NCBI GenBank assembly: GCA_007095785.1
Contig: SFBL01000018.1
Location: 1-43,017, forward strand
Source of the DNA: Microcystis aeruginosa Ma_SC_T_19800800_S464
GTDB taxonomy: Bacteria > Cyanobacteriota > Cyanobacteriia > Cyanobacteriales > Microcystaceae
DNA length: 43,017 nt
Direction: 5' to 3'
Shown: piece by piece, positions 11,095 through 43,017 of the stretch
Position numbering within the stretch: position 1 is the first letter of the stretch
Layout: the number at the start of each line of letters is the position of its first letter
The notes under the pieces: model-generated
Databases searched by the model: none
Told to the model about the DNA's origin: nothing
Seen by the model: the letters and a program-made list of their open reading frames with translations, nothing else
Position numbers and translations under genes: made by a program

Positions 11095-11397
11095 TTAATG
11101 CTGATGATGTTTATGGGGAGATTCAGCAGGGGGAGAATTAAGATTGGAAAAATGACCGTTATTTAATCCCATCCCAACGCTACCAATACTGAAAAGTCCC
11201 ATGGACACAAAACCGGCTGCAATTGTCCCCATGGCCACGGTTCCAATGGAAACTACTCCCATAGGCACAATACCGATGGAAATAACGCCCATGGGAACAA
11301 TACCAATAGAAATTATACCCGTGGGGGCAATACCGATCGACAACCATTTTCGCCCACCACAACTATTCTCTTTTTCTTGACCTAGATTGGAATCCAT
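11095..11397 (-). CDS. Decapeptide-repeat protein with His-rich tail
   Basis: I do not recognise a named family. After 23 polar residues the protein runs through about seven 10-residue units of the form S-I-G-I-V-P-M-G-V-I, with glycine and small residues at fixed positions: SIGIAPTGII, SIGIVPMGVI, SIGIVPMGVV, SIGTVAMGTI and so on. It ends in a polar tail with HKHHQH. The pattern suggests either a packed glycine-zipper membrane hairpin or a repetitive beta solenoid. The histidine tail could bind metal. It is 22 bp upstream of the acetyltransferase gene and probably transcribed with it. The 100-residue length and ATG start at 11397 are unambiguous. Confidence 0.65.
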   Translation of the reverse strand: MDSNLGQEKENSCGGRKWLSIGIAPTGIISIGIVPMGVISIGIVPMGVVSIGTVAMGTIAAGFVSMGLFSIGSVGMGLNNGHFSNLNSPPAESPHKHHQH

Positions 11398-26374: not shown

Positions 26375-27844
26375 TCATTTTTTAAGCATTTGGTTATAAA
26401 CTTGTAGTGAAAGAATTGGGAAAAACTCTTTGTCTTGATAAAACTTTTTTTCATCTCCAAAGACAACTAAAATATAATGAGCTTTGTTATCAGGACTGAC
26501 GATAATAGCCGCATCATTTCGATTATTAAATGTCCAGCCCATTTTAGCATAAAATTGAGTTTTAACGGGGAGAGATTGACCGAAAAAGTCTTGGATAGGA
26601 TTAAAAGGTTTTTCTTTCCACGCTTGAGGATGTAAATCTCGTTTAATTAATTCTTTAATCGCTTGGCTATAAGCTGGCGAAATGGCTTTTCCTTGTTCAA
26701 TTTCGAGCACCAATCTAGCAACGCTATAGGTATTTAAATAATTTCGTCTCGGTGGTGAGTTTTTGCCGTTAAGCTGACGAATTTGTTGGTCTGGTCCTGC
26801 TGGATCTTCGAGTAGATTGGGAATAGGGAAAGTTTTCTGACTAATATTCAGGGGGTAATTAACAGAATCAACAAAATAGGATGCAAAAAAATCATTAAGA
26901 GCGTAACGTTTGCTAATCCAGACTTTGAGTTTTTCTGGTGCGAGGTCTTTTTGAATCGATTTGGTTTGAGTAATTTCATCAACAATGATACTCGCTGATT
27001 CATTATCGGAATCTTTAATCATTTTAGAAATAACTTTTAGTTTTTCTGGAGGAATTTGATTCGGCTCAATTCCTTGATAATAATATTGACTATAGAGAAC
27101 TACCAGCCAGAAAAGCTTGACAATACTAGCGGGATATCTAAATTCACTATCTTGATAAGCAGCATAAGCGCAACATTCAGATTGATTTAAGTCAACTAAA
27201 CTGATAGACAATTTATCTATTGGTAACTTTCTAGATTGAGCTAAACTTACAATATTGTCAACGATTTTCTGCAATTCTTGATCTTGATAAAAAGTAGGCG
27301 ACTGTTGAATGTTATAAGTTAGCCGATTAGGCTGACTAGGAAGTTGAGGTGTTAAAGGTATTAAAGAAAAATCAGTAACGGGCGTTTTTCTAGGCAGATT
27401 AGTTGTATTTTGCGAGCTTACTATCAGGTTAATTTGATAATCTAAGTTATCTTCTTGCGTCTCTATGACTAGCGAATAGTCACCTGTTTCGGACAGAATC
27501 GTTTGATAATCGCCTTGGAGATTTTGAGATTGATTACCTGGGTAAATCAAGCTTATTTTTTTATTAGTTGTTAATTGTAATTGCTGTCCTTGAATGCCTT
27601 GAAATTTATAGCATTGGACTCGATTAGGAGAAACTCGACCTTCTAGAGATTTAGGAACGCTGTCAATTAACGATAGTTTAGTTATTGTACAGGATTCGTT
27701 TTTGGAGGAGTTTAAGATAAAATATAGAGTGATTGCAGATGTTATAAACAAAGAAATTAAGATGGGCAAAAACCTAGACCACTGGATATGGTAGGTTTTC
27801 GATTGTGTTCTGACTTTTATTGACTTTCTTCTTTTTCTTTCCAT
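26375..27844 (-). CDS. Membrane-anchored class-A beta-lactamase-like serine hydrolase
   Basis: The 489-residue protein has a basic N terminus and one transmembrane helix (about 27-45), then a beta-sandwich domain of the pre-peptidase (PPC) kind (about 65-145), a linker, and from about 190 a class-A beta-lactamase-like domain. All three active-site motifs are visible: SxxK as S240-I-V-K243, SDN at 279-281, and KMG at 434-436 in the place of KTG. It should act outside the membrane on peptidoglycan-type or ester substrates; antibiotic resistance is not implied. It is the last gene of the GTPase operon, starting 2 bp after the lipoprotein stop, so it may be an effector or remodelling enzyme of that system. 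Confidence 0.82.
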   Translation of the reverse strand: MERKRRKSIKVRTQSKTYHIQWSRFLPILISLFITSAITLYFILNSSKNESCTITKLSLIDSVPKSLEGRVSPNRVQCYKFQGIQGQQLQLTTNKKISLIYPGNQSQNLQGDYQTILSETGDYSLVIETQEDNLDYQINLIVSSQNTTNLPRKTPVTDFSLIPLTPQLPSQPNRLTYNIQQSPTFYQDQELQKIVDNIVSLAQSRKLPIDKLSISLVDLNQSECCAYAAYQDSEFRYPASIVKLFWLVVLYSQYYYQGIEPNQIPPEKLKVISKMIKDSDNESASIIVDEITQTKSIQKDLAPEKLKVWISKRYALNDFFASYFVDSVNYPLNISQKTFPIPNLLEDPAGPDQQIRQLNGKNSPPRRNYLNTYSVARLVLEIEQGKAISPAYSQAIKELIKRDLHPQAWKEKPFNPIQDFFGQSLPVKTQFYAKMGWTFNNRNDAAIIVSPDNKAHYILVVFGDEKKFYQDKEFFPILSLQVYNQMLKK

Positions 27845-27846
27845 GA

Positions 27847-28701
27847 TTAGGTTCCTACCTTATATTTTTCTATTTTCCAAACACCGTTATTTTTTTGAAA
27901 CCAATAGGTAACATTTTTTTGATAAGTTTGGGTTGGGGTTCCACATCCAGCACTTCTGGGACCATGGAGTGTAAGTTGTTCCGTGACATTGACCGTTATT
28001 GAAGGTAACGAACCTGAAGGAGCAAAAGAGACTATCTCATTGATATTGGAAAAATCATAAGTATAATAACAGCCTTTAGAGCGCAGCCAACCCACTGTCC
28101 CCCCGCAGATTCCATCATTACATTTTTCTAAGGTGTTAGAATAAAGTTGTCCGGTGGCGTATTGCTTTACTAAGCTGTCGTCAAAAGAAGAACCGAAAGC
28201 CTGTCTTTTAACTTCATACCAACGTTTAACAAGTTTTTCTGCTTCATCTTGTGTGAGATCATGGGAAGGTGAGGGAGATGGAGAGAGTCTTGGTGTCGGT
28301 GTCGGGGAAGAAGCGAGCGTTCCTAAACTCATTTCTATCTTAAAGGTTTTAGAACCTTTGGGGGCAGCAATTTGCAGCAAATACTTTCCATCTTCTGGCA
28401 ATTTTGTTCCTTGTAAAATTTGATTGTCTGGACTATAAAGCCACACACAGATATCATCATCTGTGTTATAGCTAAGGGTTTGTCCTGACTTTCCTTTAAA
28501 GGTGTATCCGACAGCTTTAGTAGAACTAACCTGATTAGATTTGGTGATATTTTCAGTTGTTAGGTTAACATTTTCTAGATTTTCTGCCATGAGAATAGCT
28601 GTGGGTTTTTGAGGACATTCTGAAGTTGTTTGAGGTTGATTAAACTGAAAATTACAACTACTGAGAAAAAAGAGAGATGAATAAATAAGGATCTGTTTCA
28701 T
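27847..28701 (-). CDS. Lipoprotein with PPC-like and IMS (ARC6-like) domains
   Basis: The 284-residue product begins with a lipoprotein signal (MKQILIYSSLFFLSSC, lipid-bearing Cys16). A PPC-like beta domain (about 55-125) resembles that of the next gene. After a Pro/Ser linker (PTPTPRLSPSPSPS) the last 135 residues look like the IMS domain (DUF4101) known from the C terminus of ARC6: EAEKLVKRWYEVKRQAFG at its start, TYWFQKNNGVWKIEKYK at its end. ATG at 28701 is chosen because it gives the lipobox; a longer frame adds 21 residues. It lies between the vWA gene (29 bp) and the beta-lactamase-like gene (2 bp). Confidence 0.75.
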   Translation of the reverse strand: MKQILIYSSLFFLSSCNFQFNQPQTTSECPQKPTAILMAENLENVNLTTENITKSNQVSSTKAVGYTFKGKSGQTLSYNTDDDICVWLYSPDNQILQGTKLPEDGKYLLQIAAPKGSKTFKIEMSLGTLASSPTPTPRLSPSPSPSHDLTQDEAEKLVKRWYEVKRQAFGSSFDDSLVKQYATGQLYSNTLEKCNDGICGGTVGWLRSKGCYYTYDFSNINEIVSFAPSGSLPSITVNVTEQLTLHGPRSAGCGTPTQTYQKNVTYWFQKNNGVWKIEKYKVGT

Positions 28702-28730
28702 GACTTTACAAGTGCCGAAAATATTTAGGA

Positions 28731-30077
28731 TTAGTTTTGTTTTTCCTTTAACCATTTTCCCCAATAATAAAAAGGAATTACTCCCCCCAAACCAAGAGCA
28801 AGAAAAATAAAAATAAGCATTAATATTCTGGTTTCTAAGGGAAGTGTGCGCCCAAAAAAATCAAGGGTATAAGGTTTAGATTGTGATGCTACTTTTTGAG
28901 TAAAAACTGTGGCTACATATTCGCCTCCTCGTCGAACGTTGGGTTGGATATAACTAATTTCGTATCGTCCTTGAATTGCATCAAGGAAAATTTCTAATTT
29001 CTCGGCAATTTCATCAGCATCACCAGCAAATTCAGTAACTCCTCCTGTTAACTTCGCAATTTCCGCTAACTGTTTTTGATCTACAAATTCTTTTTCTAGT
29101 TGCTCTCTAGTTTCTTGGGATAATTTTGGGTTATTAATATCTCCACGAACAGCAGGTTTACCTAAAGAATATTTTTTGCCTAATTGTTGTGGGGTTAAGC
29201 CATATCCTAGGGTATGAACAACAATATCTTTATTGTTCTGAAGATTGGCTAAAGTTTTCTGAATTTCTTGATAATTGCTATTGTTATCAAAGCCATCAGA
29301 AAGGAGAATAATTGAGAGTCGTGGTTGAGGTTTTAAAGGTTTTCCTTCTTTATCTTTAGGATAAAAACGACCTTCTTTATCGTTTTTAAAAAATTTGACG
29401 GTTTCTCTGAGAGCTTGATAGAAGTTGGTCGTTGCACAAGGAGTTTTATCAGCAAGACTACCTAGAAAATTAGTTAGTTTAACATCTTGCACTAAACTAA
29501 AATTATTGAGAGTTTCTGAAGTAACTTTTGGGTAATAATTACAGGCTCCAGGCTTATCTTTTTTACCTTCTACCCCAAAGGGAACAATAGATAAATAGGT
29601 GTTGCCTTTACGCTCTGAGGCGAATTTAATAAATGTTCCCAGTGCGTTAATTGCTGCATCTAATTTTCGCTTTCCTTTAGCAACCGCTTTAGCATCACAT
29701 TTTGTGTTGAGAGCCTGAGAACAATTCATACTGCCACTAAAGTCGATGAGAACGACAATCCAAGCATCAGGAGGAGTCGTTTCTCGGGGAGACTTCCAGT
29801 CAAAAGGCAGTTGTTTCCCTTGATAAGTTTTGTTGTTTTTTTTATCAAGAACTTTAAGCTGAAAATCGCTTTCATCTAGACCCATAATCGGCTTACCACC
29901 TTCTCCTGTCACTTGAATTTGAAGAGTCACTTTATCGTCGATGTCCTCAATATCTGTGATTTCAGGTTTAATTCCCCAAGCTGGGGTAATCAGAGCGCTT
30001 AACATAATCATTGATAAACTAAGCTTGTGGGTCAAGGAAGCGATTGTAGAAGACGAAACGATAGATTTTGGGTTCAT
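28731..30077 (-). CDS. Membrane-anchored von Willebrand factor A domain protein
   Basis: A vWA domain binds protein partners through a metal site. The MIDAS residues are present: DFSGS (D112, S114, S116), the threonine in CATTNFYQA (about 216) and the aspartate in LLSDGFDNN (about 261). The N terminus is a signal-like segment (LSMIMLSALITPAWG) and a C-terminal helix (ILMLIFIFLALGLGGVIPFY) ends the protein with a short cytoplasmic tail, so the vWA domain faces the periplasm. Several cysteines (CSQALNTKCDAK) may form disulfides. ATG at 30077 overlaps the upstream gene by 59 bp; 30011 would avoid the overlap but cut the signal short. Confidence 0.85.
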   Translation of the reverse strand: MNPKSIVSSSTIASLTHKLSLSMIMLSALITPAWGIKPEITDIEDIDDKVTLQIQVTGEGGKPIMGLDESDFQLKVLDKKNNKTYQGKQLPFDWKSPRETTPPDAWIVVLIDFSGSMNCSQALNTKCDAKAVAKGKRKLDAAINALGTFIKFASERKGNTYLSIVPFGVEGKKDKPGACNYYPKVTSETLNNFSLVQDVKLTNFLGSLADKTPCATTNFYQALRETVKFFKNDKEGRFYPKDKEGKPLKPQPRLSIILLSDGFDNNSNYQEIQKTLANLQNNKDIVVHTLGYGLTPQQLGKKYSLGKPAVRGDINNPKLSQETREQLEKEFVDQKQLAEIAKLTGGVTEFAGDADEIAEKLEIFLDAIQGRYEISYIQPNVRRGGEYVATVFTQKVASQSKPYTLDFFGRTLPLETRILMLIFIFLALGLGGVIPFYYWGKWLKEKQN

Positions 30078-31125
30078 CGGGGTTGTGGTTATCTTTAACA
30101 TGGAAGGTTATCAGGTTATTGTGTTTAAGTGTAATTTCTTTGGTGCTAGTTAAACGTCTGCCATTGAGTTCAATAAGGTTGTAAAATGTTGGGTTAGGAT
30201 CTAAAATGGCATCACGGCGGGTAATTTTGATGTCAGCAATATGGGGGGGGAGTCCGGGGAGATAAATATCCGATCCTCTTTCTACACCATCAGAACCTTT
30301 AGTTTTGGGGACAGAACCAATTTTGATGATTCCTTTGGCGGGAAGTTGAATCGACAGTCCCTCTTCGATTTTTTCCGCATCCGATTCACTGACAAATTTG
30401 AGCGTTTTATGGATGTTAGGAAAGACTGAATTAATGGATGTAAATTGAGGATCGATGCTTTCGAGTTCGGGAATGATTTTTCTGTACTCGAATCCTTTAC
30501 CGGCTCTCAGTGCCGCCATGTAGCTAGGAGAATTAGTAATTGTAAAGGTTAGGCCGAGCAATAAGCCTAAAATGGCAAATCCGAGGGGATCTTCTGCTTT
30601 TCTAAACGCTTCTGAGGTGCCTAACCATTGACGAATAAATTCAAAGATTACCACCGCTACGAAACTGGCAACAACCGCACCGATGATGCTAGTATATAAC
30701 CGTTGTCGAAAACGATCGCGATCGCCAGCCTCCATGCTGTAAAATTGCCAAGTTAGTCCTTCGGCTAATCCGACGGCTGCACCGACAAAAAGCCAACCCA
30801 AAAATCTACCGAGAAATTCAGCAACTCCAAATTGAATTAATAGCTGAAAGATTCCACCCGCTGCTAATCCGGCAATCAATCCGATTAAGGTGGCAATTAA
30901 TAGGGGAACTAAAGCAATCCGAAAGTTGAGTTTAGGACGGGTGGGATTACTAATAAATATTTCATTCATTACCATCCCAATCGCTAAGGATATGGCGACG
31001 CAGGGAAAAAGAACCACCTCTGGAAACCGAGAGAGGATTTTTAAATCAGTCAAGAAAATCTGACCGATATTCCAGCCAATTAAAGCTGAGGTTATTCCTG
31101 CTAGTATGTAAAGCCAAATTCTCAT
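30019..31125 (-). CDS. Multi-pass membrane protein with C-terminal FHA-like domain
   Basis: Residues 1-200 hold about six hydrophobic helices (for example LYILAGITSALIGWNIGQIF and ILGLLLGLTFTITNSPS). From about 265 to 362 the sequence has the FHA-type pattern: IIKIGSVP, GSDIYLPGLPPHIADIKI, NLIELNGRRL, ITLKHNNLITF and KIYRFVFYN. FHA domains bind phosphothreonine peptides in the cytoplasm. The key phosphate-contact arginine/serine pair is not clearly retained, so binding is uncertain. The gene overlaps the vWA gene and lies 32 bp after the GAP1-like gene, which implies a membrane complex with them. Confidence 0.75.
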   Translation of the reverse strand: MRIWLYILAGITSALIGWNIGQIFLTDLKILSRFPEVVLFPCVAISLAIGMVMNEIFISNPTRPKLNFRIALVPLLIATLIGLIAGLAAGGIFQLLIQFGVAEFLGRFLGWLFVGAAVGLAEGLTWQFYSMEAGDRDRFRQRLYTSIIGAVVASFVAVVIFEFIRQWLGTSEAFRKAEDPLGFAILGLLLGLTFTITNSPSYMAALRAGKGFEYRKIIPELESIDPQFTSINSVFPNIHKTLKFVSESDAEKIEEGLSIQLPAKGIIKIGSVPKTKGSDGVERGSDIYLPGLPPHIADIKITRRDAILDPNPTFYNLIELNGRRLTSTKEITLKHNNLITFHVKDNHNPDEPKIYRFVFYNRFLDPQA

Positions 31126-31157: not shown

Positions 31158-33788
31158 TTAATCAATTGGGTTTACTTTACCGCAAATTGGTGTATTACTT
31201 AATGTTTGACCTAGTTGAGCAGCTACATCACACTTCAAAAGGTTATAGGTATTCCTTTCATAGTTAATCACTCCATCAACATCAATATTAATAGATTGCT
31301 CCTTTTTAAGTCTAGATTTAAGACTTTCTTGGTATTGTAAAATAGCTTTAACCCAAGCTTCTTTATCTGCTGGTTCAGTCATACGACTAAGGTAAATTCC
31401 AAATTCATTATTGGGATCAAGAACATTAATTACATTATATGAAGATGAAACAGAAAAAGCCTCATCTAATTCTTTTACTAAAGTTTCTAAACTAAATTTT
31501 GTCTTTTGTAGTTTATCAAACTCTTGGATTCCCTTTTTAATTGCTTCGTCTCTTGTCGGAGATGGGGATGGAGTTGGAGTTGGAGTTGGAGATTGCGTTG
31601 TTTTTTTAGCGGCAGTTTTAGCCGCTTTAACTTTGGAAAACCCTAGATTTTTACAATTGTCAGCAGTTTCTTTAGTTGCTTGCAGTTGCATATTTTGAAG
31701 TAGATTACATTTTAGAGTTTCATTGGTTTTTCCAGACTTATCAATAATACCGTCAATATCATCAGAATTAGATGGTGTAACTTTATATAATTGATAAGAC
31801 AATATAGATAAAATCCACTTTTCTTTATCTTTATTATCTTCTAGTTTATTTAGAGTCTTAAGCTCAAAAGATTTATTGGGATCGAGAATTTTTGAAATAG
31901 CTTCATCAATCTCATTCTTGTTAGGTTTAGAAGCATCTGCTCTAGTAGTATGTGTTAAGTCATTCTTAATTTGCTCTAATGATTTTTCGGTATTTGAAAA
32001 GTTTTTGATCGCTTTTTTAATAATCGGCGATTCTGAAGTATTTGATCCTCCGGGTAAACCGGGTACAGATAAATTAGCTAAATTCAATAATCTTTGAAAG
32101 AAAAATCCTCCTAAAGTGAATATAAGCAAAAAATAAATAATAGCAATAAAACAGCCAGATGCTCCACCTCTAAACACGGAAGATAGAAGAAATATTGCTG
32201 TTTCTTTTATTTCTCTAAATACTGGTTCATACCAAGGTATATCTCTTTTAACTTCAATACCAAAATTATAAACTTCATCCCCCTTCAATTTATGGCGTTT
32301 ATATACGTCACTAGGAATCTTTTCCTGGGCGAGATGATAAAAGAAAACGGTTAAACTATATCCTTTATACTGTTCCTGCGATGACACTTCTAGTTTATCA
32401 AATAGGCGAGCAAGATGGATGTATTTTTGAGTTGTTGGATCGGGATAAAAACGATGATTCCAAACTTTCCTTAAGTCATCTATAATTTCTTGCCAACGTG
32501 CATCATTTAACACATAAAATTCTTTTTCTTTTAAACCTTCTGTTTCCGTGCTTAGATAACCTGCTTTTTTCTTTAAATCTTGTTTCAATCCCACACTTGT
32601 GTAACTTTTATATGTTACTCCCCAGAGTCCGACTTCATCTAATAAGAGTTTAGCTGTAGCATCTATCAATTCTGGCTGCTTAATGATATGAAGAATAAGT
32701 ATATTAATACCTTGCTTAACTTGATTAAATATTAATGAGTTTCGCTGAGTAATAGCTTTTACAATTTCCCCTTGAAAACTCTGAGATATTGGATAATCAT
32801 CCTCCTGTTTTTTCATTATCCAAGCGACAAAATCTGGCAGCTTTTCAGGGCAAATTATGGCTTGTAGCGTCAAAAGACGTACTTTAAAGTCATCATAAAT
32901 TTGTTGCTCATAAGCATCTTTGGAGCCTTGTCCTTCAAATATGGAATTCCAAAAGGTTGTATAATCCTGTTGAATTTTAGGATTGTTCAAAGCATCTTCG
33001 ATAGGGGCTAAATTTTCTTGAAAGTTTCCTGTCCGGCAGGAATTCTTAATAGCAGTTCTGATTAGGGGTTCTTCGGGTATAGCCGGGGGAAGTTGAGGAA
33101 TACTGTTTATTGTGGCTCTTATGGTCTCCTCTGCTTTTTTACTGGCGGGATGAATGACTAAAAAGCGATTTGGTTTCTCTAAAGCCTCCACATTACAGGC
33201 CCAAGAAATCAATTTATTATATTTTGCTGGGTCAGTTTTAGAGGCAATTTTATGAATGATTAAAGCAGTATATGGTGGCTGTTTTTGAGTAATAATTATC
33301 GGTGTTTTTCCTTCCCAAATCCCATCCAACTCAGGCGGAATATAGTCATTAATTTGAGTCCCAGTATCGTCATATTCTGTAAACCAATCGACTTGTTTAT
33401 GATCGGAGGGGTTAAAAGTTGGCATTCCATTTTTCATGTACCAAGATACAAGATCAGGCAGCTTACCCCTTTCCTCACACAAGAAATAACGATAGAGAGA
33501 TGCACCCCGTCCCCGTTCATCCATCCCCCGTGTGACGACGGCAATGACTGACCAAGCCTCTCCATGATATTCCACTTCCCGTCCAATAATGGCGGGATTT
33601 TGGCTAGATGCGCCTTCAGAAACGGCAAATTCCCGATTTTTGATCGCTAACTGTACAGGTCTAGGAATTTCAGCAAGGGTTGAGTTCATGTACTCTCCCG
33701 AAAAACCCCGCGACCTCCACTCACCAGCACCGCCAGTGCCATCGACTAAAATACCCGTGCTAAATTCATGAATGTGAATAGTAGTCAT
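31158..33788 (-). CDS. GAP1-like GTPase-associated membrane protein
   Basis: The 876-residue protein sits directly downstream of the three GTPases. Its first 105 residues (GEWRSRGFSGEYMNSTLAEI ... DERGRGASLYRYFLCEE) fit the N-terminal domain of GTPase-associated protein 1 (GAP1), whose hallmark is a GR-x-GN/S-like strand before an aromatic. A helical middle follows to about 520, then one transmembrane helix (about 542-566). The C-terminal third holds two copies of a roughly 110-residue domain (about 590-712 and 749-870) joined by a Thr/Pro/Ser linker. AAGGA precedes ATG at 33788. The GAP1 assignment rests on remembered family pattern and on context. Confidence 0.6.
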   Translation of the reverse strand: MTTIHIHEFSTGILVDGTGGAGEWRSRGFSGEYMNSTLAEIPRPVQLAIKNREFAVSEGASSQNPAIIGREVEYHGEAWSVIAVVTRGMDERGRGASLYRYFLCEERGKLPDLVSWYMKNGMPTFNPSDHKQVDWFTEYDDTGTQINDYIPPELDGIWEGKTPIIITQKQPPYTALIIHKIASKTDPAKYNKLISWACNVEALEKPNRFLVIHPASKKAEETIRATINSIPQLPPAIPEEPLIRTAIKNSCRTGNFQENLAPIEDALNNPKIQQDYTTFWNSIFEGQGSKDAYEQQIYDDFKVRLLTLQAIICPEKLPDFVAWIMKKQEDDYPISQSFQGEIVKAITQRNSLIFNQVKQGINILILHIIKQPELIDATAKLLLDEVGLWGVTYKSYTSVGLKQDLKKKAGYLSTETEGLKEKEFYVLNDARWQEIIDDLRKVWNHRFYPDPTTQKYIHLARLFDKLEVSSQEQYKGYSLTVFFYHLAQEKIPSDVYKRHKLKGDEVYNFGIEVKRDIPWYEPVFREIKETAIFLLSSVFRGGASGCFIAIIYFLLIFTLGGFFFQRLLNLANLSVPGLPGGSNTSESPIIKKAIKNFSNTEKSLEQIKNDLTHTTRADASKPNKNEIDEAISKILDPNKSFELKTLNKLEDNKDKEKWILSILSYQLYKVTPSNSDDIDGIIDKSGKTNETLKCNLLQNMQLQATKETADNCKNLGFSKVKAAKTAAKKTTQSPTPTPTPSPSPTRDEAIKKGIQEFDKLQKTKFSLETLVKELDEAFSVSSSYNVINVLDPNNEFGIYLSRMTEPADKEAWVKAILQYQESLKSRLKKEQSINIDVDGVINYERNTYNLLKCDVAAQLGQTLSNTPICGKVNPID

Positions 33789-33792
33789 TGTT

Positions 33793-34707
33793 TTAATCCT
33801 TATCTAATTCTTTGTGATGTTGACCGGTACAAAGCCAGTAAATCGGGGAAACTAAACCAAAGGGTCGCCACCGCTTCGGATCGCGGATAATAGAAGTTGT
33901 TCCTTGGCGATCGCGTTGTTTTTCGATCGAGTTGGGTTCGGGATAATTTGTTCCCAACGTACCAAAGGCAGAAGTGGCAAAATAGTCCACTTCACCTCCT
34001 CCCCTATCTACCCAGTTTTCTAATTTATTTTGCATCAGAGGAAAGCGTCTTTGTGTCAATTTTCTCGGTTCATGACGACTCACCCACAGTTGACTCAGTT
34101 CGCACTTACTAACCGCAAAAGCAACGCGGCGCTGTTTGGGATTAATATCCACCCTGTCTAAAGCTGCTAAAAACTTTTCTAGTCCAATAGCATAGTCTTT
34201 ATCTTTGCGGTGAGAGGTTCCATCCACTAACAATAAAAGACCTGTAGCCACCACACAGTCTTCGAGATAGTCAACTAAGCGCGGATCGCCGGTTTTGTTA
34301 ATGAGATCCCGAAGAAACTCGCCGGAATAATCTTTACAGTTAACATTGAGACGTATTGCGCTAGAAGATAGGCCTCTTTGCAGATTTTTCAAAGAAAATT
34401 GTTCTTTGAGAACAATACTTAATCCATAATCTTTGACTTCATCAACGGTGGCTTCTAGGGGAGTTGGTTCTAATTCTAGTCCCTGTTCCAAGATGTTCTG
34501 TGCCATGTTCATCAGTTGTGCGCTGGCTTCTTGGTTCCCCACTGGAGTCACCGATTGAACTGGACTATCGGCCTTAGCATTTGGCCAATAGGCGAGGGAA
34601 GCCATATAGGCGGTTTTACCAGCACTGAGATCGCCAATAACCCGTATTTCGGCATTGGCATCTTTTAATTCAGGAGCTTTTGGTTTTAACCAGTCAAACG
34701 CTTTCAT
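33793..34707 (-). CDS. Double-GTPase-type P-loop protein (second of pair)
   Basis: A 304-residue P-loop protein. The Walker A motif is GDLSAGKT (25-32), the switch II motif is DYSG (126-129), and the place of the base-specificity motif is taken by SKCE (200-203), giving the pattern seen in DO-GTPase1 proteins. It is a clear paralogue of the next gene: both share the order P-loop, D-Y-x-G-E and A-x-x-x-SKCE-x-x-x-x-W. ATG at 34707 lies inside the end of the upstream gene (14-bp overlap), typical of translational coupling. The GAP1-like gene follows 4 bp after its stop. Confidence 0.8.
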   Translation of the reverse strand: MKAFDWLKPKAPELKDANAEIRVIGDLSAGKTAYMASLAYWPNAKADSPVQSVTPVGNQEASAQLMNMAQNILEQGLELEPTPLEATVDEVKDYGLSIVLKEQFSLKNLQRGLSSSAIRLNVNCKDYSGEFLRDLINKTGDPRLVDYLEDCVVATGLLLLVDGTSHRKDKDYAIGLEKFLAALDRVDINPKQRRVAFAVSKCELSQLWVSRHEPRKLTQRRFPLMQNKLENWVDRGGGEVDYFATSAFGTLGTNYPEPNSIEKQRDRQGTTSIIRDPKRWRPFGLVSPIYWLCTGQHHKELDKD

Positions 34708-35539
34708 TTTTGGCTCTTTGATTTGGTTTTTTACTGAGCCAATAGAGAGGTTCAATTAGATTATAAGGTTGCCATGAGTTTGGTTGTCTAATCACCGAAG
34801 CCGGTTCTTCTCCTTTCATCCGATCTTCTCGGTTAGGACGGGGATTATCTCTGCCTAAAACGCCAAAGGTAGAAAGGGCAAAAAAACGCAGATTTTGGGG
34901 AATAACTTTTGCTCGCAAGGTTTTAGTAGTCTCTCGTAAATGGACGGCGAACAAATCAATTTCTGGGTCAAGCCTACCGGGCCAAATTTCTCCTCTTTCA
35001 CATTTACTCATAACTATTGCTAACTTCAAATTCTGAGAACGACCCCGCTCATCCATTAATTTAAGGAATTGTTTCATGATTCTGTTATAAAAGTTATCAG
35101 TTCCGGGTTCCCATCCTGTTAGCATAATTAGACAGCCGATGACATCGGTAAAACATTCATTAATAAAATCTTCATGGATAGGCTTTCTTGCACTGGGACT
35201 GGCAATTGCCTCAAAGACTTCTCCGGGATAATCTCTAGCGGTTAATTGAAAAGTCTCCGTGGAACTATACCAATAGGGTTTGGCTGTGATACCAAAGGAA
35301 TAAAAGGGTAAGTCATCTACTGACTCAATCTCTTGTCCGATGACAGTTCTATCTAGATCGGCCGCCTGTTTGAGAATATTTTCAGCTTTTTCTGCAAGTA
35401 TTCTTGTGGCAGGATTTTGGGGGTTGACAGTAAATAGTTTTTTGCCTTGTTTGTGTTCTTTGAAGTAGGATAAAGCCGCTAAATAGGTGGTTTTTCCTGC
35501 TGCTGTCGGTCCAATTACAACAATATTTCCACTGGTCAT
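34694..35539 (-). CDS. Double-GTPase-type P-loop protein (first of pair)
   Basis: A 281-residue paralogue of the preceding entry. Walker A is GPTAAGKT (10-17), switch II DYPG (103-106) followed by EVFEAI, and SKCE (178-181) stands where Ras-like GTPases have NKxD. Both paralogues end in a shared segment, near SIIRDPKRWRPFGLVSPIYW in one and SVIRQPNSWQPYNLIEPLYW in the other, which shows common origin. The two products probably form a heterodimer. It lies 19 bp downstream of the third GTPase gene. Confidence 0.82.
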   Translation of the reverse strand: MTSGNIVVIGPTAAGKTTYLAALSYFKEHKQGKKLFTVNPQNPATRILAEKAENILKQAADLDRTVIGQEIESVDDLPFYSFGITAKPYWYSSTETFQLTARDYPGEVFEAIASPSARKPIHEDFINECFTDVIGCLIMLTGWEPGTDNFYNRIMKQFLKLMDERGRSQNLKLAIVMSKCERGEIWPGRLDPEIDLFAVHLRETTKTLRAKVIPQNLRFFALSTFGVLGRDNPRPNREDRMKGEEPASVIRQPNSWQPYNLIEPLYWLSKKPNQRAKNESV

Positions 35540-35558
35540 TTTTACTCCTATTTTAACT

Positions 35559-36317
35559 TTACTTTGCGAGATGACTGCCCAAATAAATCCAGGGTAGTTC
35601 TAATAATTTTCGATTATATATGCTCGTAATGAAACATCTAATTGTTAACCCTTGAATACTACGGTTAAGTTGATTGATTTGAGGGTGAATCGGTCGAAAA
35701 TAACGCTGAAAAACATAGTTATCTCTCTCTTGCCATGTTATGGGTTGGAAATCAGGATTAAAAGCGAGTTTTCTGGCTTCTTCTTCGAGATCGATTGGGA
35801 GTAAATCGGCTTTATTTAAACAGAGGAGAAGATGTCGAATTTTCGGACAATCTTGCTGGAAAAATTCAAGCCAACGGTCAAAACGATTACACCATTGTTT
35901 TGTGGTGATAAAGTCATCTTTGTTGACTTGACCGGTCGGTTTAATGATGTCCCGATAGGGCGGTAAAATCAACATAATTCCTTCAGCTTTTCTGATCGTT
36001 TCGAGAAATCCTTTCCATTCATCGGGTTGTTTGTCTTGCCAAGATTTTCGCCAGATTTCACCGGGGGTGTCCAACCAATCCAAGGCAATCATTTTCTCTC
36101 CTGTGGGAAGGGTGACATTAACTTCTATGTACTGCTCATAAATTGCTTGCTTATCATCTGTTGCTCTAGTTTTGCCCTGTTCTGGAAGATATAAAATGCC
36201 TTTGAGATACTGATAATCGGGATAAGTAACTTTGACATAATTTCCCCTGGGGTTAGCTAATTCCAAGACTAGGTGAGTTTTACCTGTTTCGCGATCGCCA
36301 ATATAAATAACTCCCAA
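35559..36317 (-). CDS. Third small GTPase-like protein
   Basis: A 252-residue P-loop GTPase of a different subtype from the pair. Walker A is GDRETGKT, switch II LDTPGEIW, and the guanine-specificity motif LNKADLL is intact, so guanine binding is likely. The promoter-proximal gene of the operon. TTG at 36317 is the better start: AGGAGG ends 8 nt before it, whereas GTG at 36326 begins at the last base of that ribosome binding site. Confidence 0.82.
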   Translation of the reverse strand: MGVIYIGDRETGKTHLVLELANPRGNYVKVTYPDYQYLKGILYLPEQGKTRATDDKQAIYEQYIEVNVTLPTGEKMIALDWLDTPGEIWRKSWQDKQPDEWKGFLETIRKAEGIMLILPPYRDIIKPTGQVNKDDFITTKQWCNRFDRWLEFFQQDCPKIRHLLLCLNKADLLPIDLEEEARKLAFNPDFQPITWQERDNYVFQRYFRPIHPQINQLNRSIQGLTIRCFITSIYNRKLLELPWIYLGSHLAK

Positions 36318-36325: not shown

Positions 36326-36331
36326 CCTCCT
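36326..36331 (-). promoter_or_regulatory. Ribosome binding site that fixes the GTPase start
   Basis: On the minus strand a perfect AGGAGG is followed by eight bases and then TTG at 36317. The alternative GTG at 36326 overlaps this site and would have no spacing. Confidence 0.6.
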
Positions 36332-36646: not shown

Positions 36647-37354
36647 ATGAGTAACCCAGACAGCAAACTTAAGCTTCTTGAAGAAATAGCACTTTTGGCT
36701 AAAAGCTCCCCTGCAAACAGCAAGGAGAGACAAAAATGGCTAACAAAACTAACCAATGAGATTCAAAACTCTAATAAAGTGTACTGTAAAAATATCTATA
36801 ATTTTCCTAAGTCTGTCTATCAGGATATTTTTCACGAAGCTCTACAGCAGACTTTTTTAGAGATTTTTGAAAAAATTGATCTGTACGACCCAAGTAAAGG
36901 TAATGTCTTGGCATGGGTAAGTTTTTTGCTCGATAAGCGATTTATCGATGCTGTCAGGGAACATTTAAAACTGCGACATAGACAAAATAACGGCAAACGA
37001 GTCAGAATTTATGAGCAATCTTTGGATGTTCCTCTCCAGTCGGAGCAATCAAGCTGGACTAATGCCTCAGATATTTCCTTGCTTGATATAATCCAGCAAC
37101 CTGAATCTATGTCCCCCCAAAAAGATTGGGAGAGATTATGGGATTTTATCCAAAAAGACCCTAGAGATTGTTTTCGACAGACTCACATAGAAAAGCATCC
37201 GGAGGCTAATTTTCAAGCAATCTGTATAAGGCGATTTAATGGACAATCTTGGAAGGAAATGTCAACAGAATGGGGAATTTCCTTAGCAACTTTAAGCAGC
37301 TTTTATCAACGCAGCGTTGATAAATTGCAACCAATTTTTCAAGAATATTTTTAG
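36647..37354 (+). CDS. Sigma-70-family-like factor
   Basis: A 235-residue protein with two sigma-like regions. Residues 55-110 (EALQQTFLEIFEKIDLYDPS, NVLAWVSFLLDKRFIDAV) match sigma region 2. Residues 187-228 (ANFQAICIRRFNGQSWKEMS, then EWGISLATLSSFYQRSVDKL) form a sigma region 4 helix-turn-helix. The size and pattern fit a cyanobacterial sigma-like family that pairs with DUF1822, whose gene is 18 bp downstream. It diverges from the GTPase operon and could control it or its own operon; that is inference. Confidence 0.8.
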   Translation: MSNPDSKLKLLEEIALLAKSSPANSKERQKWLTKLTNEIQNSNKVYCKNIYNFPKSVYQDIFHEALQQTFLEIFEKIDLYDPSKGNVLAWVSFLLDKRFIDAVREHLKLRHRQNNGKRVRIYEQSLDVPLQSEQSSWTNASDISLLDIIQQPESMSPQKDWERLWDFIQKDPRDCFRQTHIEKHPEANFQAICIRRFNGQSWKEMSTEWGISLATLSSFYQRSVDKLQPIFQEYF

Positions 37355-37372
37355 AAATAGGAGACAAAAACC

Positions 37373-38287
37373 ATGATGCCACTAGCTGAACGTTTAACTT
37401 TTACAGTCCCCTTGAGCGGTGCTGATTTTAAATTAGCTCAAAAGTTTAGTAGCGAGCAGAAAAATTCCGATAAAAGTCAACAGGTTTTTCTAAATACTTT
37501 AGCCGTGCTTGCTGTTAACTTTTACTGCCAGTGTTTGAAAGTAGAAACAAATTTAGAGGAAAGCACTATTGGGCATTATAATCAGCGAATTTTAATGGAT
37601 AGTGCTGATTTAAAGATCGATGTTCTCGGTAAATTAGAATGTCGTCCAGTTTTGCCAAATGAAAATATCTGTTATGTCCCGTCCGAGGTATGGTCAGATA
37701 GAGTGGGTTATGTGGTGGTAGAAATTGATGAAGAAGCGAAGAAAGCTATTTTAGTTGGATTTGTCGAGCAGATAGAAACTGACGAATTACTATTAGCTCA
37801 ATTACCGGATATTGACAATTTAGTTGATTTACTTCTTCTGGCTAAAAACAAACAATTTCTCGAAAGAATTTTTGCCAAGAATTGGGATGAGCATGAATCA
37901 GCAAAAATTCTTAATGCTAAACAGCAAAATTTTGTTTGCCTAGATGATCCCGCTTTACCTACAATTGATAAATCTATCACCTCTCCTCTCTATAAGGCTA
38001 AATACATTACTCTGAGAAGACGGACATTTATCCTATTCGTCAGGATAACCCCTGAAAAAGAAGGAAAGTTTCAACTTCTCGTGGAAGTTCAATCCTATAG
38101 AGGGGAAAGAATTCCATCTGATTTGAATTTGAAGCTACTATCTTTATCCGATCAAACTTTGAAGGCAAATCTGACAAAAGGAGGTGATTATATCTCTTTG
38201 GAATATACCCTTCAATTGGGAGAGAGTTTTCAAATACAAGTGAAGCGAGCAGAGGAAATTCACACAGAACAATTTTCTTTTGACTAA
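37373..38287 (+). CDS. DUF1822-family protein
   Basis: A 304-residue cyanobacterial protein. The start RLTFTVPLSGADFKLAQKFS and the middle CYVPSEVWSDRVGYVVVEID followed by AILVGFVEQI are the DUF1822 signature. A C-terminal beta-rich segment (TLRRRTFILFVRITPEKEGK and following) resembles an immunoglobulin-like strand set. Function is unknown, but the pair with the sigma-like gene is a recurrent cyanobacterial arrangement, often beside CHAT or CHASE2 proteins; a CHAT gene is indeed nearby. AGGAG precedes ATG at 37373, and ATG at 37376 is equally possible. Confidence 0.82.
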   Translation: MMPLAERLTFTVPLSGADFKLAQKFSSEQKNSDKSQQVFLNTLAVLAVNFYCQCLKVETNLEESTIGHYNQRILMDSADLKIDVLGKLECRPVLPNENICYVPSEVWSDRVGYVVVEIDEEAKKAILVGFVEQIETDELLLAQLPDIDNLVDLLLLAKNKQFLERIFAKNWDEHESAKILNAKQQNFVCLDDPALPTIDKSITSPLYKAKYITLRRRTFILFVRITPEKEGKFQLLVEVQSYRGERIPSDLNLKLLSLSDQTLKANLTKGGDYISLEYTLQLGESFQIQVKRAEEIHTEQFSFD

Positions 38288-38305
38288 ACCCTATTTTAAC
38301 GGGAT

Positions 38306-38342
38306 AATTTATCTAAATTTCTGATTAAAATTTAGATAAATT
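38306..38342 (+). terminator. Perfect AT-rich hairpin after DUF1822
   Basis: AATTTATCTAAATTT (38306-38320) and AAATTTAGATAAATT (38328-38342) form a perfect 15-bp stem with a 7-base loop. It separates the sigma-DUF1822 pair from the next genes. Being AT-rich and without a T-run, it may be an attenuator, processing site or protein-binding palindrome instead. Confidence 0.5.
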
Positions 38343-38380
38343 GTTAAAAATTTTATCTTATATCTCTTCTCAAGTAAGCT

Positions 38381-39247
38381 ATGTCAAACCAAAAAGATTT
38401 GTCGGATATTCGCAATTATCTCTACGATCAAGCTGAAGTGAGATGGTGGTACAGCTTGTTGTTATCTTTATGCGCTCAAGTTTTAGCATTAATTGCGACA
38501 GTCAACAATAAATTGTGGCTTTTAGCTATTGCCGGTTTTCTTGCTTTAATCACTCCAATAGCAGTAGCATGGTTGCGAGAATGGGCTAATAACTTGACAC
38601 AAAAAGCTGATAAATGTAGAAGAATGATTTTATATGCTGATAGTTTAGGAGAAGATATTCCGAGCCATGAGTTAGCTATGGTTAGAGCTTGGACAACGGG
38701 AATTCAATTACAACAAGCTCCTTTTACTTATCCTTATTATTCATCTTCTCTATCTAATAGTCCACAAAGATTAATGGATATTACAACAGAATCTGCTTAC
38801 TTTACTGAGTTTTTAGCAACAAAAGTGGTCAATTATTTACTGGTATTTTTAGTTATTTCAATTTCAATTTTATCAGGAATTATTTATTTTGCAGACTTTG
38901 CAACTTCTCCGGCTACAATCAGCCAAGAAAATCAAGATATGACTGTGGTAAAGTGGGCAGTTAAGGCAGCATTAACAGCTATTTCTTTTATCCTATCTGG
39001 GGATATATTACTGCTTTGGAAAAAGTATTCAGATCTGAAATTATCTGCTCAAAATACTTTTCAAAAATGCGCCGATCTTCGTTACGATAAATCCTTATCT
39101 ACTTCTGAAGCTATGCAGGTTGTTGAGGACTATCATCTAGCGTTGATTCAGAGTCCACCGATTCCTCTAAAACTTTACCTAACTTACAGAGATCCCTTAA
39201 ACCAATCTTATCAAGATAGTCATTCAATTGGCTCTAATCGACCCTAG
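38381..39247 (+). CDS. Four-helix membrane protein, S-4TM-like
   Basis: A 288-residue protein with two pairs of transmembrane helices: about 24-42 and 45-66, then about 150-170 and 192-213. The regions between and after are cytoplasmic and helical. This resembles the S-4TM family, predicted pore-forming effectors paired with nucleotide-generating or nucleotidyltransferase proteins in conflict systems. The gene is followed by a DUF6932 nucleotidyltransferase-like protein 51 bp on. The family assignment is from topology and gene context only; the N-terminal segment differs from typical S-4TM sequences. Confidence 0.5.
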   Translation: MSNQKDLSDIRNYLYDQAEVRWWYSLLLSLCAQVLALIATVNNKLWLLAIAGFLALITPIAVAWLREWANNLTQKADKCRRMILYADSLGEDIPSHELAMVRAWTTGIQLQQAPFTYPYYSSSLSNSPQRLMDITTESAYFTEFLATKVVNYLLVFLVISISILSGIIYFADFATSPATISQENQDMTVVKWAVKAALTAISFILSGDILLLWKKYSDLKLSAQNTFQKCADLRYDKSLSTSEAMQVVEDYHLALIQSPPIPLKLYLTYRDPLNQSYQDSHSIGSNRP

Positions 39248-39298
39248 TTTTTATTGGGCAATGCCTAGCTTGCTTATAAATTATCTAATATTAAAAAC

Positions 39299-39760
39299 AT
39301 GGGAATTCCTCCTTTTAATAAACACGGCTTTTTGCCGCCGGGAGAACATAAATTAGATAGCTGGAAAGAGCTTGTAGAAAGATTTGGAACAACTCGAAGA
39401 AGACAACGTCTTCTAGTCGGACTAAAAAAAGTATTGCTAAATCTTCAACAAGCAGGTTGCCAAAAAGTCTATCTTGATGGTAGTTTTGTGACTAAAAAGC
39501 GAAAACCCAATGATTATGATGGTTTTTGGGAAAGCGAGAAAGTAAATCCAGAAAAGCTTGATAGTATCCTGCTGGATACTTCCTTAGAAGGATGTGGAGA
39601 GCAAAAGAAAAAGTATGGAGGAGAATTATTAACCGCAGATACGAGAGCCGTAAATGGTCAAACGATTTATGGTTATTATACAATAGATATAGAAAGAGGA
39701 ATTACTAAAGGTATTGTTTGCGTTGAGTTACAGTTAGTGGATTTACAGCTATGGTTTTGA
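39299..39760 (+). CDS. DUF6932-family nucleotidyltransferase-like protein
   Basis: A 153-residue protein matching DUF6932: GIPPFNKHGFLPPGEHKLDS at the start, ELVERFGTTRRRQRLLVGLK, the core VYLDGSFVTKKRKPNDYDGF, and EQKKKYGGELL later. The GSF...DYD pattern is the G-S/D-x-D metal site of nucleotidyltransferases of the MNT kind. The family usually pairs with a small antitoxin-like protein beginning NERxYRITxAQ. That partner follows here with a 10-bp overlap, but in altered form. It probably adds a nucleotide to a target or toxin; no direct evidence shows which. Confidence 0.75.
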   Translation: MGIPPFNKHGFLPPGEHKLDSWKELVERFGTTRRRQRLLVGLKKVLLNLQQAGCQKVYLDGSFVTKKRKPNDYDGFWESEKVNPEKLDSILLDTSLEGCGEQKKKYGGELLTADTRAVNGQTIYGYYTIDIERGITKGIVCVELQLVDLQLWF

Positions 39761-40227
39761 ACGAAAAGGGATATGAACTTAGAAAAGCTCAAGCTCAAGA
39801 GTTTGAGAAAGCAATAGCAGAATTTTCTGACTATGCAATTCAACATCCTGAAATCGATTCAAGAATCTTAAAAGCAAGAGAAAATTCTTTACGGACTTTG
39901 TTAGCGAGAATCAATACAGAACTTGCAGAATATGAAAATAAACAGTTAGAAAGTTTAGCTTTGGCTGCTAAAAATTATCCAAAAATTAGTCAGCAAAGAT
40001 ATAAAAGTTTAACGAAATTAACTAATAAAATTCAAGAATCTAATCAAGTACAAAATCAAAATATCTATAGTTCTTCCCCGGATATTTCTGGAATGGCATG
40101 GCAGCAAACTTTGAAGCAAGTATTTGATAAAATCGATCAATACAATCCTAATAAAGAAACGGTATCGCAGTGGTTTTTATCGCTGTTCAAGCTTCAATAT
40201 CGTAAGCTGGAAAAAGAATGTTTATAG
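39751..40227 (+). CDS. Antitoxin-like N terminus fused to a sigma-factor fragment
   Basis: Residues 1-65 (LNEKGYELRKAQAQEFEKAI ... LARINTELAEYEN) match the helical N terminus of the XRE-type partners of DUF6932 proteins. The expected helix-turn-helix is missing. From residue 66 the sequence instead parallels residues 12-105 of the sigma-like protein at 36647: LTKLTNKIQESNQVQNQNIY against LTKLTNEIQNSNKVYCKNIY, and KQVFDKIDQYNPNKETVSQW against LEIFEKIDLYDPSKGNVLAW. It ends before region 4. This is a gene fusion formed by partial duplication of the sigma gene. The product may have new or no activity. Confidence 0.7.
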   Translation: MVLNEKGYELRKAQAQEFEKAIAEFSDYAIQHPEIDSRILKARENSLRTLLARINTELAEYENKQLESLALAAKNYPKISQQRYKSLTKLTNKIQESNQVQNQNIYSSSPDISGMAWQQTLKQVFDKIDQYNPNKETVSQWFLSLFKLQYRKLEKECL

Positions 40228-40232
40228 CCTTG

Positions 40233-42366: not shown

Positions 42367-43017
42367 TTAATCTGACAGGACGTATCCAACCAAACCAGAG
42401 GGAATCTCTCCCCAAGCGTGAGTTCCGGTATGCCCTACCGTACTTAGTCCCTTTTTGAGAATATTGATAGCGGCGTTAATATCTCTATCTTCTACATAGC
42501 CACAATGGGGACAAACATGGGTTCTAGTAGATAGAGATTTAGGTACTTTTTCTCCACAGCTAGAACAATTTTGACTGGTATTATGGGGCGATACTGCTAC
42601 CGTAGCCTTACCGTATTTAAAGCCAAAATATTCTAACCATTGTCGAAAAATTGACCAAGCCACATCATTAATAGATTTAGCTAGTTTCGAGTTTTTTACC
42701 ATGCCTTGAACATTTAAATCTTCGTAAGCAATAAAATCGTTAGATTTAATGACGCGCAATGCCTCTTTTGAGCCAAAGCCTTTACGTTGCCTACTTACTC
42801 TTAAATGCTTTTTGGCATATCTCTTTCTAGCTTTTTTGTAGTTGTTTGATTGGGGTTGACCTCGTTTAAACTTCTTAGATTTCTTCCGATTCAGACGATT
42901 TAATCTTTTCTCTGCTTTACGATAGTATTGCGGTATTTCTACCGTTTCTCCATCGCTGTTAGCATAGAAAACTTTTAATCCCACATCCAACCCTACACAT
43001 TTTTTAGTAGGTTCAAG
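42367..43017 (-). CDS. tnpB: TnpB RNA-guided nuclease (IS605 OrfB), 5' end outside window
   Basis: TnpB is the RuvC-type, RNA-guided nuclease of IS200/IS605 elements, an ancestor-type relative of Cas12. The window contains the C-terminal 216 residues. The three RuvC carboxylates are visible: Asp in GLDVGLKVF, Glu in IAYEDLNVQGM and Asp in CGYVEDRDINAAINIL. The zinc ribbon has CSSCG and CPHCG. No stop or frameshift interrupts this part, so it may be active. No TnpA lies on the right-hand end side; any companion would be beyond the window. Confidence 0.9.
   Translation of the reverse strand, partial: LEPTKKCVGLDVGLKVFYANSDGETVEIPQYYRKAEKRLNRLNRKKSKKFKRGQPQSNNYKKARKRYAKKHLRVSRQRKGFGSKEALRVIKSNDFIAYEDLNVQGMVKNSKLAKSINDVAWSIFRQWLEYFGFKYGKATVAVSPHNTSQNCSSCGEKVPKSLSTRTHVCPHCGYVEDRDINAAINILKKGLSTVGHTGTHAWGEIPSGLVGYVLSD

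What the first reader, a model, noticed from the sequence alone, without database searches (positions are those of the whole stretch)
31158..36317. Three-GTPase plus GAP1-like operon resembling a double-GTPase conflict system
Two paralogous P-loop proteins (DYxG, SKCE in place of NKxD), a third with intact NKAD, and a GAP1-like partner are tightly packed with overlaps. Established: DO-GTPase/GAP1 loci are predicted conflict systems. Inference: this is a variant with a third, more canonical GTPase. No function has been seen directly.
Basis: partly seen in the sequence, partly recalled or inferred. Interest (0 to 1): 0.75.

Follow-up and report, generated by a model that had tools for sequence, protein, structure and literature searches.

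The report
Cyanobacterial three-GTPase envelope signalling operon
A cyanobacterium carries a mobile, 8-to-16-gene operon that couples three switch proteins to a membrane protein with a probable wall-binding tail and to a protein-phosphorylation module; it looks like a new, still untested variant of a predicted bacterial defence system.

Summary
The four genes are real and conserved. Family consensuses and some orthologues of the two paralogous GTPases pass Pfam's DO-GTPase1/2 cut-offs; the window's own copies fall just below. The third GTPase is a constant part: G3-G1-G2 recur in that order in 65 of 81 cyanobacterial loci. The "GAP1-like" partner sits where GAP1 sits, but no GAP1 profile matches 58 relatives or their consensus. 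Its modelled N-terminal domain most resembles the T6SS regulator TagF and longin-type GTPase regulators (weak, Z 6.9); a helical middle, one transmembrane helix and, in 10 of 58, a recognisable peptidoglycan-binding domain follow. The operon continues with TM/FHA-like, vWA, IMS-lipoprotein and serine-hydrolase genes. In many relatives, including a 36-kb plasmid, it runs on into a vWA-vWA-FHA-PP2C-kinase half, which this genome has on another contig. All 16 genomes with a strong marker for that half have the GAP-like gene. The GAP-like gene evolves fastest (highest dN/dS in 8 of 9 close pairs), mostly in its C-terminal part, as a variable recognition component would. Best reading: a cyanobacterial, envelope-spanning variant of the DO-GTPase systems. 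A conflict role is plausible, not shown.

The parts
35559..36317 (-). G3: third GTPase (P-loop GDRETGKT, DTPGE, NKAD), first gene of the cassette; TTG start fits the alignment (a GTG at 36326 is also possible)
34694..35539 (-). G1: DO-GTPase-type paralogue (GPTAAGKT, DYPGE, SKCE)
33793..34707 (-). G2: DO-GTPase2-type paralogue (GDLSAGKT, DYSGE, SKCE); ATG start that fits the alignment, overlaps the end of G1 by 14 nt
31158..33788 (-). GAP-like protein, 876 aa: TagF/longin-like N domain (1-235, model), helical middle (240-520, model), one TM (about 538-570), C-terminal region with two repeats that by alignment correspond to the peptidoglycan-binding domain of some relatives (no Pfam hit in the window copy); fastest-evolving gene of the cassette
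30019..31125 (-). multi-TM protein with a C-terminal FHA-like region (Pfam FHA in 5 of 25 relatives, best E 0.026, not in the window copy)
28731..30101 (-). vWA protein (DFSGS MIDAS, by eye) with a signal-like N terminus (by eye) and a C-terminal TM; predicted periplasmic domain; Pfam VWA 17.9 bits, below its cut-off
27847..28764 (-). lipoprotein-like (by eye) protein with an ARC6-like IMS domain (82.2 bits, cut-off 22.8); 0 to 4 copies in relatives
26375..27844 (-). TM-anchored serine hydrolase of the Beta-lactamase2 family (36.7 bits, cut-off 22; SxxK and SDN present)

Best explanation
A cyanobacterial, envelope-spanning variant of the DO-GTPase ('GTPase-centric') systems. Proposed working: (1) G1 and G2 form a paralogue pair, probably a heterodimer, under the membrane, with G3 as a further constant switch subunit [inferred]. 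(2) They dock on the longin/TagF-like N domain of the GAP-like protein, which acts as their regulator or scaffold [inferred from a predicted fold and gene order]. (3) Its TM helix and C-terminal region, with the periplasmic vWA, IMS lipoprotein and serine hydrolase, report on the cell wall; the fast-changing C-terminal part is the recognition surface [topology predicted, divergence measured]. (4) A linked kinase, PP2C phosphatase, FHA and vWA module, with a conserved double KTVKM-type tail on vWA3 as candidate phosphosite, sets the threshold and passes the signal on [co-occurrence shown, biochemistry inferred]. (5) The trigger would be an attack on the envelope (phage, predator, competitor) and the output either repair or cell death through partners such as the neighbouring CHAT/trypsin protease and ECF sigma genes [speculative].
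For: DO-GTPase profiles met by family consensuses and 3 of 6 single relatives; D-x-x-G-E signature, the Walker-B glutamate by which Kaur et al. define the family. G3-G1-G2 in order in 65 of 81 loci, with GAP, FHA and VWA following in 36 (other ORFs between ignored, repeated labels merged). GAP-like model pLDDT 83.6, N domain 90.6. TM prediction; PG_binding_1 in 10 of 58 relatives, best 7.5e-15. The two halves together: marker c8 strong in 16 of 292 genomes, all among the 19 with a GAP-like match, mostly because they are neighbours, but in G233 they lie 0.43 Mb apart on one contig; one 16-gene run on a 36-kb plasmid. GAP-like gene has the highest dN/dS in 8 of 9 pairs, its TM/C-terminal part being the least conserved region in 6 of 7 pairs. 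Patchy and mobile: 5 of 12 genomes of the genus, 8 plasmid records. The kinase + PP2C + vWA theme is reported for actinobacterial GAP1-N2 systems.
Against: No GAP1 profile hit and no detectable sequence similarity of the N domain to the one canonical GAP1-N2 available. The window's own GTPases fall below Pfam cut-offs; searched against its whole genome DO-GTPase2 finds nothing at E<=0.001 and DO-GTPase1 only G3 at 21.4 bits. The TagF/longin match is in the range of chance for such searches: Foldseek best E 5e-3 with an unrelated regulator at 1.2e-2, Z 6.9, and with the full-length model FANCD2-FANCI rows on the helical middle score as high as TagF (6.5 against 6.7). 3 of 19 GAP genomes (G051, G109, G235) lack c8. 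No PADLOC defence model fits. High dN/dS does not reach positive selection (Fisher p 0.16) and could be relaxed constraint or recombination between tandem copies; one of 9 pairs goes the other way.
Confidence: 0.6

Rival explanations
1. Envelope-stress or cell-wall maintenance system without a conflict role: a GTPase and phospho-threonine switch that senses wall damage and adjusts wall enzymes, carried as a niche-adaptive accessory operon.
For: Wall-related parts: PG-binding in 10 of 58 relatives, serine hydrolase with SxxK and SDN, a penicillin-binding protein directly upstream in L126; a DO-GTPase in some Psp operons is predicted to serve membrane stress (PMC11237479, passages read).
Against: Plasmid location, patchiness within the genus (5 of 12) and fast divergence of the GAP-like protein are unusual for housekeeping.
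Confidence: 0.25
2. A regulator of contact-dependent or secretion machinery, by analogy with the T6SS threonine-phosphorylation pathway (PpkA kinase, PppA phosphatase, Fha, TagF).
For: TagF is the best structural match of the N domain (first by Z also with the full model); kinase, PP2C and FHA genes are linked; TagF represses T6SS by binding Fha (PMC5995506, passages read).
Against: No T6SS apparatus gene among the proteins that I scanned with Pfam; the match is weak and by fold only; the passages read name no GTPase in that pathway.
Confidence: 0.08
3. A plasmid or island maintenance/transfer function (entry exclusion or conjugation control).
For: Plasmid-borne copies, one close to a type IV secretion gene on a plasmid typed as conjugative; a TraG/TrwB-like coupling ATPase family (Pfam checked in one) is the gene before G3 in 5 loci, 3-12 nt away in the three measured.
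Against: Only 8 plasmid records were found and the coupling-like ATPase is in 5 of 81 loci; transfer genes were not looked for systematically.
Confidence: 0.07

Closest known systems
DO-GTPase/GAP1-N2 GTPase-centric systems (Kaur et al. 2020, eLife 9:e52696, PMC7159879; passages read)
   Same: Paralogous DO-GTPases with Walker-B glutamate; a large multi-domain protein encoded just downstream; C-terminal TM on that protein; PG-binding and vWA partners; a reported theme with kinase, PP2C and vWA; variable component.
   Different: A constant third GTPase with NKAD; no TM predicted and no zinc-ribbon hit on the GTPases; no GAP1-N/M/C profile match; no FNIII protein noticed; IMS lipoproteins and serine hydrolase added; PG-binding domain on the GAP-like protein itself; cyanobacteria are not among the phyla listed as main carriers of GAP1-N2.
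T6SS threonine-phosphorylation pathway: PpkA, PppA, Fha, TagF (PMC5995506, passages read)
   Same: Kinase + PP2C + FHA with a TagF-like fold in the membrane protein's N domain.
   Different: No T6SS apparatus noticed; GTPases present; TagF similarity only by weak fold match.
Longin/roadblock GTPase regulators (GATOR1-Rag, FLCN-FNIP, DENN-Rab; MglA/MglB from recall and paper listings)
   Same: Predicted longin-like fold beside paired GTPases at a membrane.
   Different: No sequence relation found; Z 3.7-4.6; function not tested.
EACC2-caspase systems with ECF sigma and DUF1822 (PMC8195603, passages read)
   Same: ECF sigma, DUF1822 and CHAT genes lie next to the operon in the window and between its two halves in G292.
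   Different: A separate, divergent set; EACC2 itself was not looked for.

Membership tests
DO-GTPase (Pfam PF19975/PF19993) | score over the curated Pfam cut-off (27 bits) | tested here: inconclusive
   Window proteins 23.7, 22.7, 23.1 bits, below. Consensus G1 29.4 and G2 29.7, above; G3 consensus 24.7, below. Six single relatives: L044 G1 39.1, L049 G2 35.0, L044 G2 34.4 above; L049 G1 14.2, L049 G3 18.0, L126 G2 20.4 below. All 18 G2 members match DO-GTPase2 at E<=1.
DO-GTPase | conserved glutamate in the Walker B motif (D-x-x-G-E), per Kaur et al. | tested here: met
   76/77 G1, 69/71 G2, 65/69 G3.
DO-GTPase | two paralogous copies side by side (38% of systems) | tested here: met
   G1-G2 adjacent and paralogous.
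DO-GTPase/GAP1 system | GAP1-N1 or GAP1-N2 domain in the downstream protein | tested here: not met
   No hit in 58 GAP-like proteins at E<=0.02 or in the consensus at E<=10. Profile against one real GAP1-N2: -3.5 bits, reached by 107 of the 170 shuffles (of 500) that got a score; that second test has little power.
DO-GTPase/GAP1 system | GAP1-M and GAP1-C domains | tested here: not met
   GAP1-M in 0 of 194 cyanobacteria.
DO-GTPase/GAP1 system | large multi-domain protein encoded directly downstream of a DO-GTPase gene | tested here: met
GAP1-N2 system | FNIII-repeat protein in the operon | not tested
   None noticed among Pfam hits of the operon; fast-evolving FNIII repeats could be missed.
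TagF (T6SS) | TagF domain by sequence profile | tested here: not met
   No TagF family among the Pfam hits of 58 GAP-like proteins at E<=0.02 or of the consensus, nor a TagF chain in the PDB sequence search.
TagF/longin fold | N domain fold match | tested here: inconclusive
   9t0n Z 6.9, 192 residues aligned, 4.1 A; next Lst4 longin 4.6, GATOR1 4.3; below Z 8, under which the tool warns of common arrangements.
known anti-phage system | PADLOC model | tested here: not met
   Ten proteins scanned; best E 3.7e-4, G1 against P-loop models, no convincing hit.

The most novel reading that the evidence does not exclude
A bacterial counterpart of the Rag-GATOR arrangement: paired GTPases plus a third one read out by a transmembrane longin-type regulator anchored to the cell wall, wired to a T6SS-like kinase/phosphatase/FHA relay, forming a mobile wall-breach immunity system of cyanobacteria. 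It would make the GAP-like domain a third GAP1-N class and suggest that T6SS TagF is a GTPase-type adaptor fold.
Probability: 0.22. Interest if true: 0.85.

Novelty: new variant of a known kind. Interest (0 to 1): 0.6.

Why it matters
It extends a predicted immunity-type GTPase system to bloom-forming cyanobacteria, in a compact form that includes one complete plasmid copy in a named, cultured strain (Trichormus variabilis ATCC 29413). That makes the untested DO-GTPase idea directly testable by curing or deleting a plasmid operon. If the longin/TagF-like fold is right, it also links bacterial GTPase switches with the fold that eukaryotes use for GTPase regulators. In the two plasmid records that I read, the three GTPases and the GAP-like gene are annotated as 'hypothetical protein'.

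Tried and rejected
GAP1 membership of the fourth protein: tried by Pfam on single proteins, on 17 relatives (one search shows 25 of 37 families, so hits weaker than about E 0.19 are unseen), on 58 relatives at E<=0.02 with all 13 families shown and on a consensus, by profile comparison with one canonical GAP1-N2 and with shuffles: nothing. The positive control, G2 profile against the canonical DO-GTPase2, was also weak, so the profile comparisons have little power.

Viral carriage: one scan with the GAP-like query found 2 pattern matches and no relative in viral contigs. Solved relatives of the GTPases by sequence: none significant. GAP-like profile against PDB sequences: none of note.

I first took the phosphorylation half on contig C96 as unlinked in this genome. 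The complete congener G292 shows both halves within about 27 kb, with the sigma/DUF1822/CHAT genes between, so in the window genome the contigs are probably adjacent and broken near a TnpB gene. Only G233 keeps the unlinked argument.

Positive selection on the GAP-like N domain: dN exceeds dS in residues 1-150 but not significantly (p 0.16 and 0.19).

Dropped before counts: fragments and proteins under 220 aa; of the 87 GAP cluster members, 11 partial or short ones before alignment A5 (76 kept, 3 unclustered added); 6 of 79 segments under 150 aa and 7 of the remaining 73 (long insertions or extra copies) before A8; 21 of 79 (extra copies and the longest) before A9. The dN/dS pairs were hand-picked close pairs, L042 used twice, and only one GAP-like copy of each locus; the regional comparison covers 7 of the 9 pairs.
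Full report
WHAT IS THERE. The minus strand from 36326 to 26375 holds eight co-directional genes. In order of transcription: G3 (255 aa with the GTG start, 252 with TTG), G1 (281), G2 (320, or 304 from the ATG that fits the alignment), a large GAP-like protein (876), a multi-TM/FHA-like protein (368), a vWA protein (456), an IMS-domain lipoprotein-like protein (305) and a serine hydrolase (489). The finding names the first four. Upstream and divergent lie an ECF-like sigma factor, a DUF1822 protein, a four-TM protein and two small ORFs; then a CHAT/trypsin protein on the minus strand and a TnpB-like end. G000 is probably Microcystis: a congener's contig of 35265 bases matches in length one of Microcystis viridis; this is inference.

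GTPases. Window scores against Pfam DO-GTPase models are 23.7 (G3), 22.7 (G1) and 23.1 (G2) bits, below the cut-off of 27; searching the window's genome gives DO-GTPase1 only at G3, 21.4 bits, and no DO-GTPase2 match at E<=0.001. Consensus sequences from 18 members each give G1 29.4 (DO-GTPase1), G2 29.7 (DO-GTPase2) and G3 24.7. Of six single relatives scanned, three pass (39.1, 35.0, 34.4) and three do not (20.4, 18.0, 14.2). All 18 G2 members match DO-GTPase2 at E<=1. The signature D-x-x-G-E and the KCE replacement of NKxD are conserved. G3 is related to G1 more distantly (hhalign probability 63, E 6.8e-5). Profile searches found no significant solved relative.

GAP-like protein. No Pfam, PADLOC or NCBIfam family covers the window copy. 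Among 58 relatives only PG_binding_1 recurs (10 of 58, best 7.5e-15); no GAP1 or TagF model appears at E<=0.02. The AlphaFold2 model has mean pLDDT 83.6, pTM 0.62: a mixed N domain, a helical middle, a TM helix and helical C-terminal repeats. The N domain alone gives pLDDT 90.6, pTM 0.89. VIA-align ranks TagF 9t0n first (Z 6.9, 192 residues, 4.1 A), then the Lst4 longin (4.6), a second TagF entry (4.5), GATOR1 (4.3), PA0076 (4.1, also TagF by recall) and DENND1B-Rab35 (4.0), followed by Fuzzy-Inturned, FLCN-FNIP2, TRAPP and SNARE longins, mixed with PAS/LOV and SecB folds. That several chains are longins is recalled where the title does not say so. Foldseek's best E is 5.2e-3, TagF, with an unrelated mycobacterial regulator at 1.2e-2. 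With the full-length model TagF is first at Z 6.7, but FANCD2-FANCI, matched on the helical middle, reaches 6.5. Below Z 8 such a match may be chance; what speaks for it is that three TagF entries and many longin GTPase regulators come together.

DISTRIBUTION. One genome-contig scan with the G1 alignment gave 186 candidate stretches, 88 confirmed, 80 kept; all 80 record titles are cyanobacterial. In 292 sampled cyanobacterial genomes 19 have a GAP-like match. In the genus 5 of 12 genomes have a G2 match: the window's own, one 99% identical (G292), one 61% (G294) and two distant ones (39-41%). Eight plasmid records, all cyanobacterial, carry G1 at E below 1e-57; the other listed records have E of 0.4 or more, many being IstB-type ATPases, and 28 of 68 records were not listed. 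I read two of the eight. In 65 of 81 loci G3, G1 and G2 occur in that order, and in 36 the six genes G3-G1-G2-GAP-FHA-VWA do, with other ORFs between ignored and repeated labels merged; the rest show shorter subsets (contig ends, missing or interrupted members, not counted apart). L121 has an extra G2, L055 has FHA and VWA inverted, L129 shows none by the clustering used. The GAP-like gene occurs in one to three copies where it was recognised.

SECOND HALF. In many relatives the operon continues into a second vWA with TM, a protein c8 of about 130 aa, a third vWA (vWA3), a zinc-ribbon FHA protein, a pseudokinase-PP2C protein and a kinase. Plasmid B of Trichormus variabilis ATCC 29413 (35,762 bases) carries the whole set, from G3 to the kinase, in one run of 16 genes across the start of its record. 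In the window's genome this half is on contig C96, 3503-12249. In the complete congener G292 it lies upstream of G3, with the CHAT, sigma and DUF1822 genes between. c8 matches 17 of 292 genomes; 16 are strong (E below 1e-25) and all 16 are among the 19 GAP genomes; the 17th, G245, is weak and has no GAP-like match; G051, G109 and G235 have the GAP-like gene without c8. Linkage explains much of this co-occurrence; in G233, however, the halves are 0.43 Mb apart on one contig. Within the genus, c8 occurs in 3 of 12 genomes, all with G2. All 10 complete cluster-7 proteins of 433-466 aa in the named loci (vWA3), and that of C96, end with two KT[VIM]K[MI] motifs nine residues apart.

DIVERGENCE. Between the window and G292, G1 and G2 are 99% identical, the GAP-like protein 84% and 80% (two copies), G3 88-89%. 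Over nine close pairs the GAP-like gene has the highest dN/dS of the genes compared in eight (0.29-0.83; in those eight G1 and G2 range from 0.04 to 0.27). The exception is L078/L106, where G1 (0.76) and G2 (0.66) exceed GAP (0.57). In the seven pairs split by region, the TM or C-terminal PG part is the least conserved in six and the middle in one (the window-G292 pair); the N domain in none. Positive selection is not significant.

COMPARISON. Kaur et al. [quoted passage not shown] GAP1-N2 is found in 0 of 292 and GAP1-M in 0 of 194 cyanobacterial genomes, the control genome Corynebacterium glutamicum ringing in both, while DO-GTPase2 passes its cut-off in 29 of 292. GAP1-N1 and GAP1-C were not sought phylum-wide. 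So cyanobacteria have DO-GTPases without the two GAP1 domains sought, and the GAP-like family is a candidate partner. Paper searches for DO-GTPase, GAP1-N2, GTPase-associated protein 1, GTPase-centric, double-GTPase or double GTPase listed Kaur et al., one further relevant mention (the PSP paper) and three papers unrelated by title; TagF with longin gave five listings, none relevant by title. Not finding it in print rests on these searches only.

VERDICT. Conflict is the most likely role but no function has been shown.

Noticed in passing
window 36647-42278: ECF-like sigma factor, DUF1822, four-TM protein and a CHAT/trypsin protein form a set like the EACC2-caspase neighbourhoods with ECF sigma and DUF1822 (PMC8195603); in G292 it sits between the two halves of the GTPase system, a CHAT/trypsin relative lies upstream of G3 in L056, and sigma, DUF1822 and CHAT relatives follow the kinase in G294.
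   Followed up: partly
window 15461-18247: 928-aa protein with a caspase-like N terminus, a TM and a periplasmic-binding-like C terminus (by eye).
   Followed up: no
window 42367-43017: TnpB-like end that probably breaks the assembly between the two halves of the system; absent at that place in G292.
   Followed up: partly
L053, L056, L061, L067, L077: Members of one protein family, TraG/TrwB-like coupling ATPase by Pfam in L056, lie directly upstream of G3 in these five loci, 3-12 nt away in the three measured (L053, L056, L061).
   Followed up: partly
L120:5627-8839: Type I restriction HsdR subunit upstream of the cassette, which hints at a defence island.
   Followed up: no
L174 (G091:C2), L175 (G111:C70): Pairs of strong DO-GTPase2 proteins in two cyanobacteria without a GAP-like match; their partners are unknown.
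   Followed up: no
window 11095-11397: 100-aa protein made of near-identical GISIGIVPMGVVSIG-type repeats (by eye).
   Followed up: no
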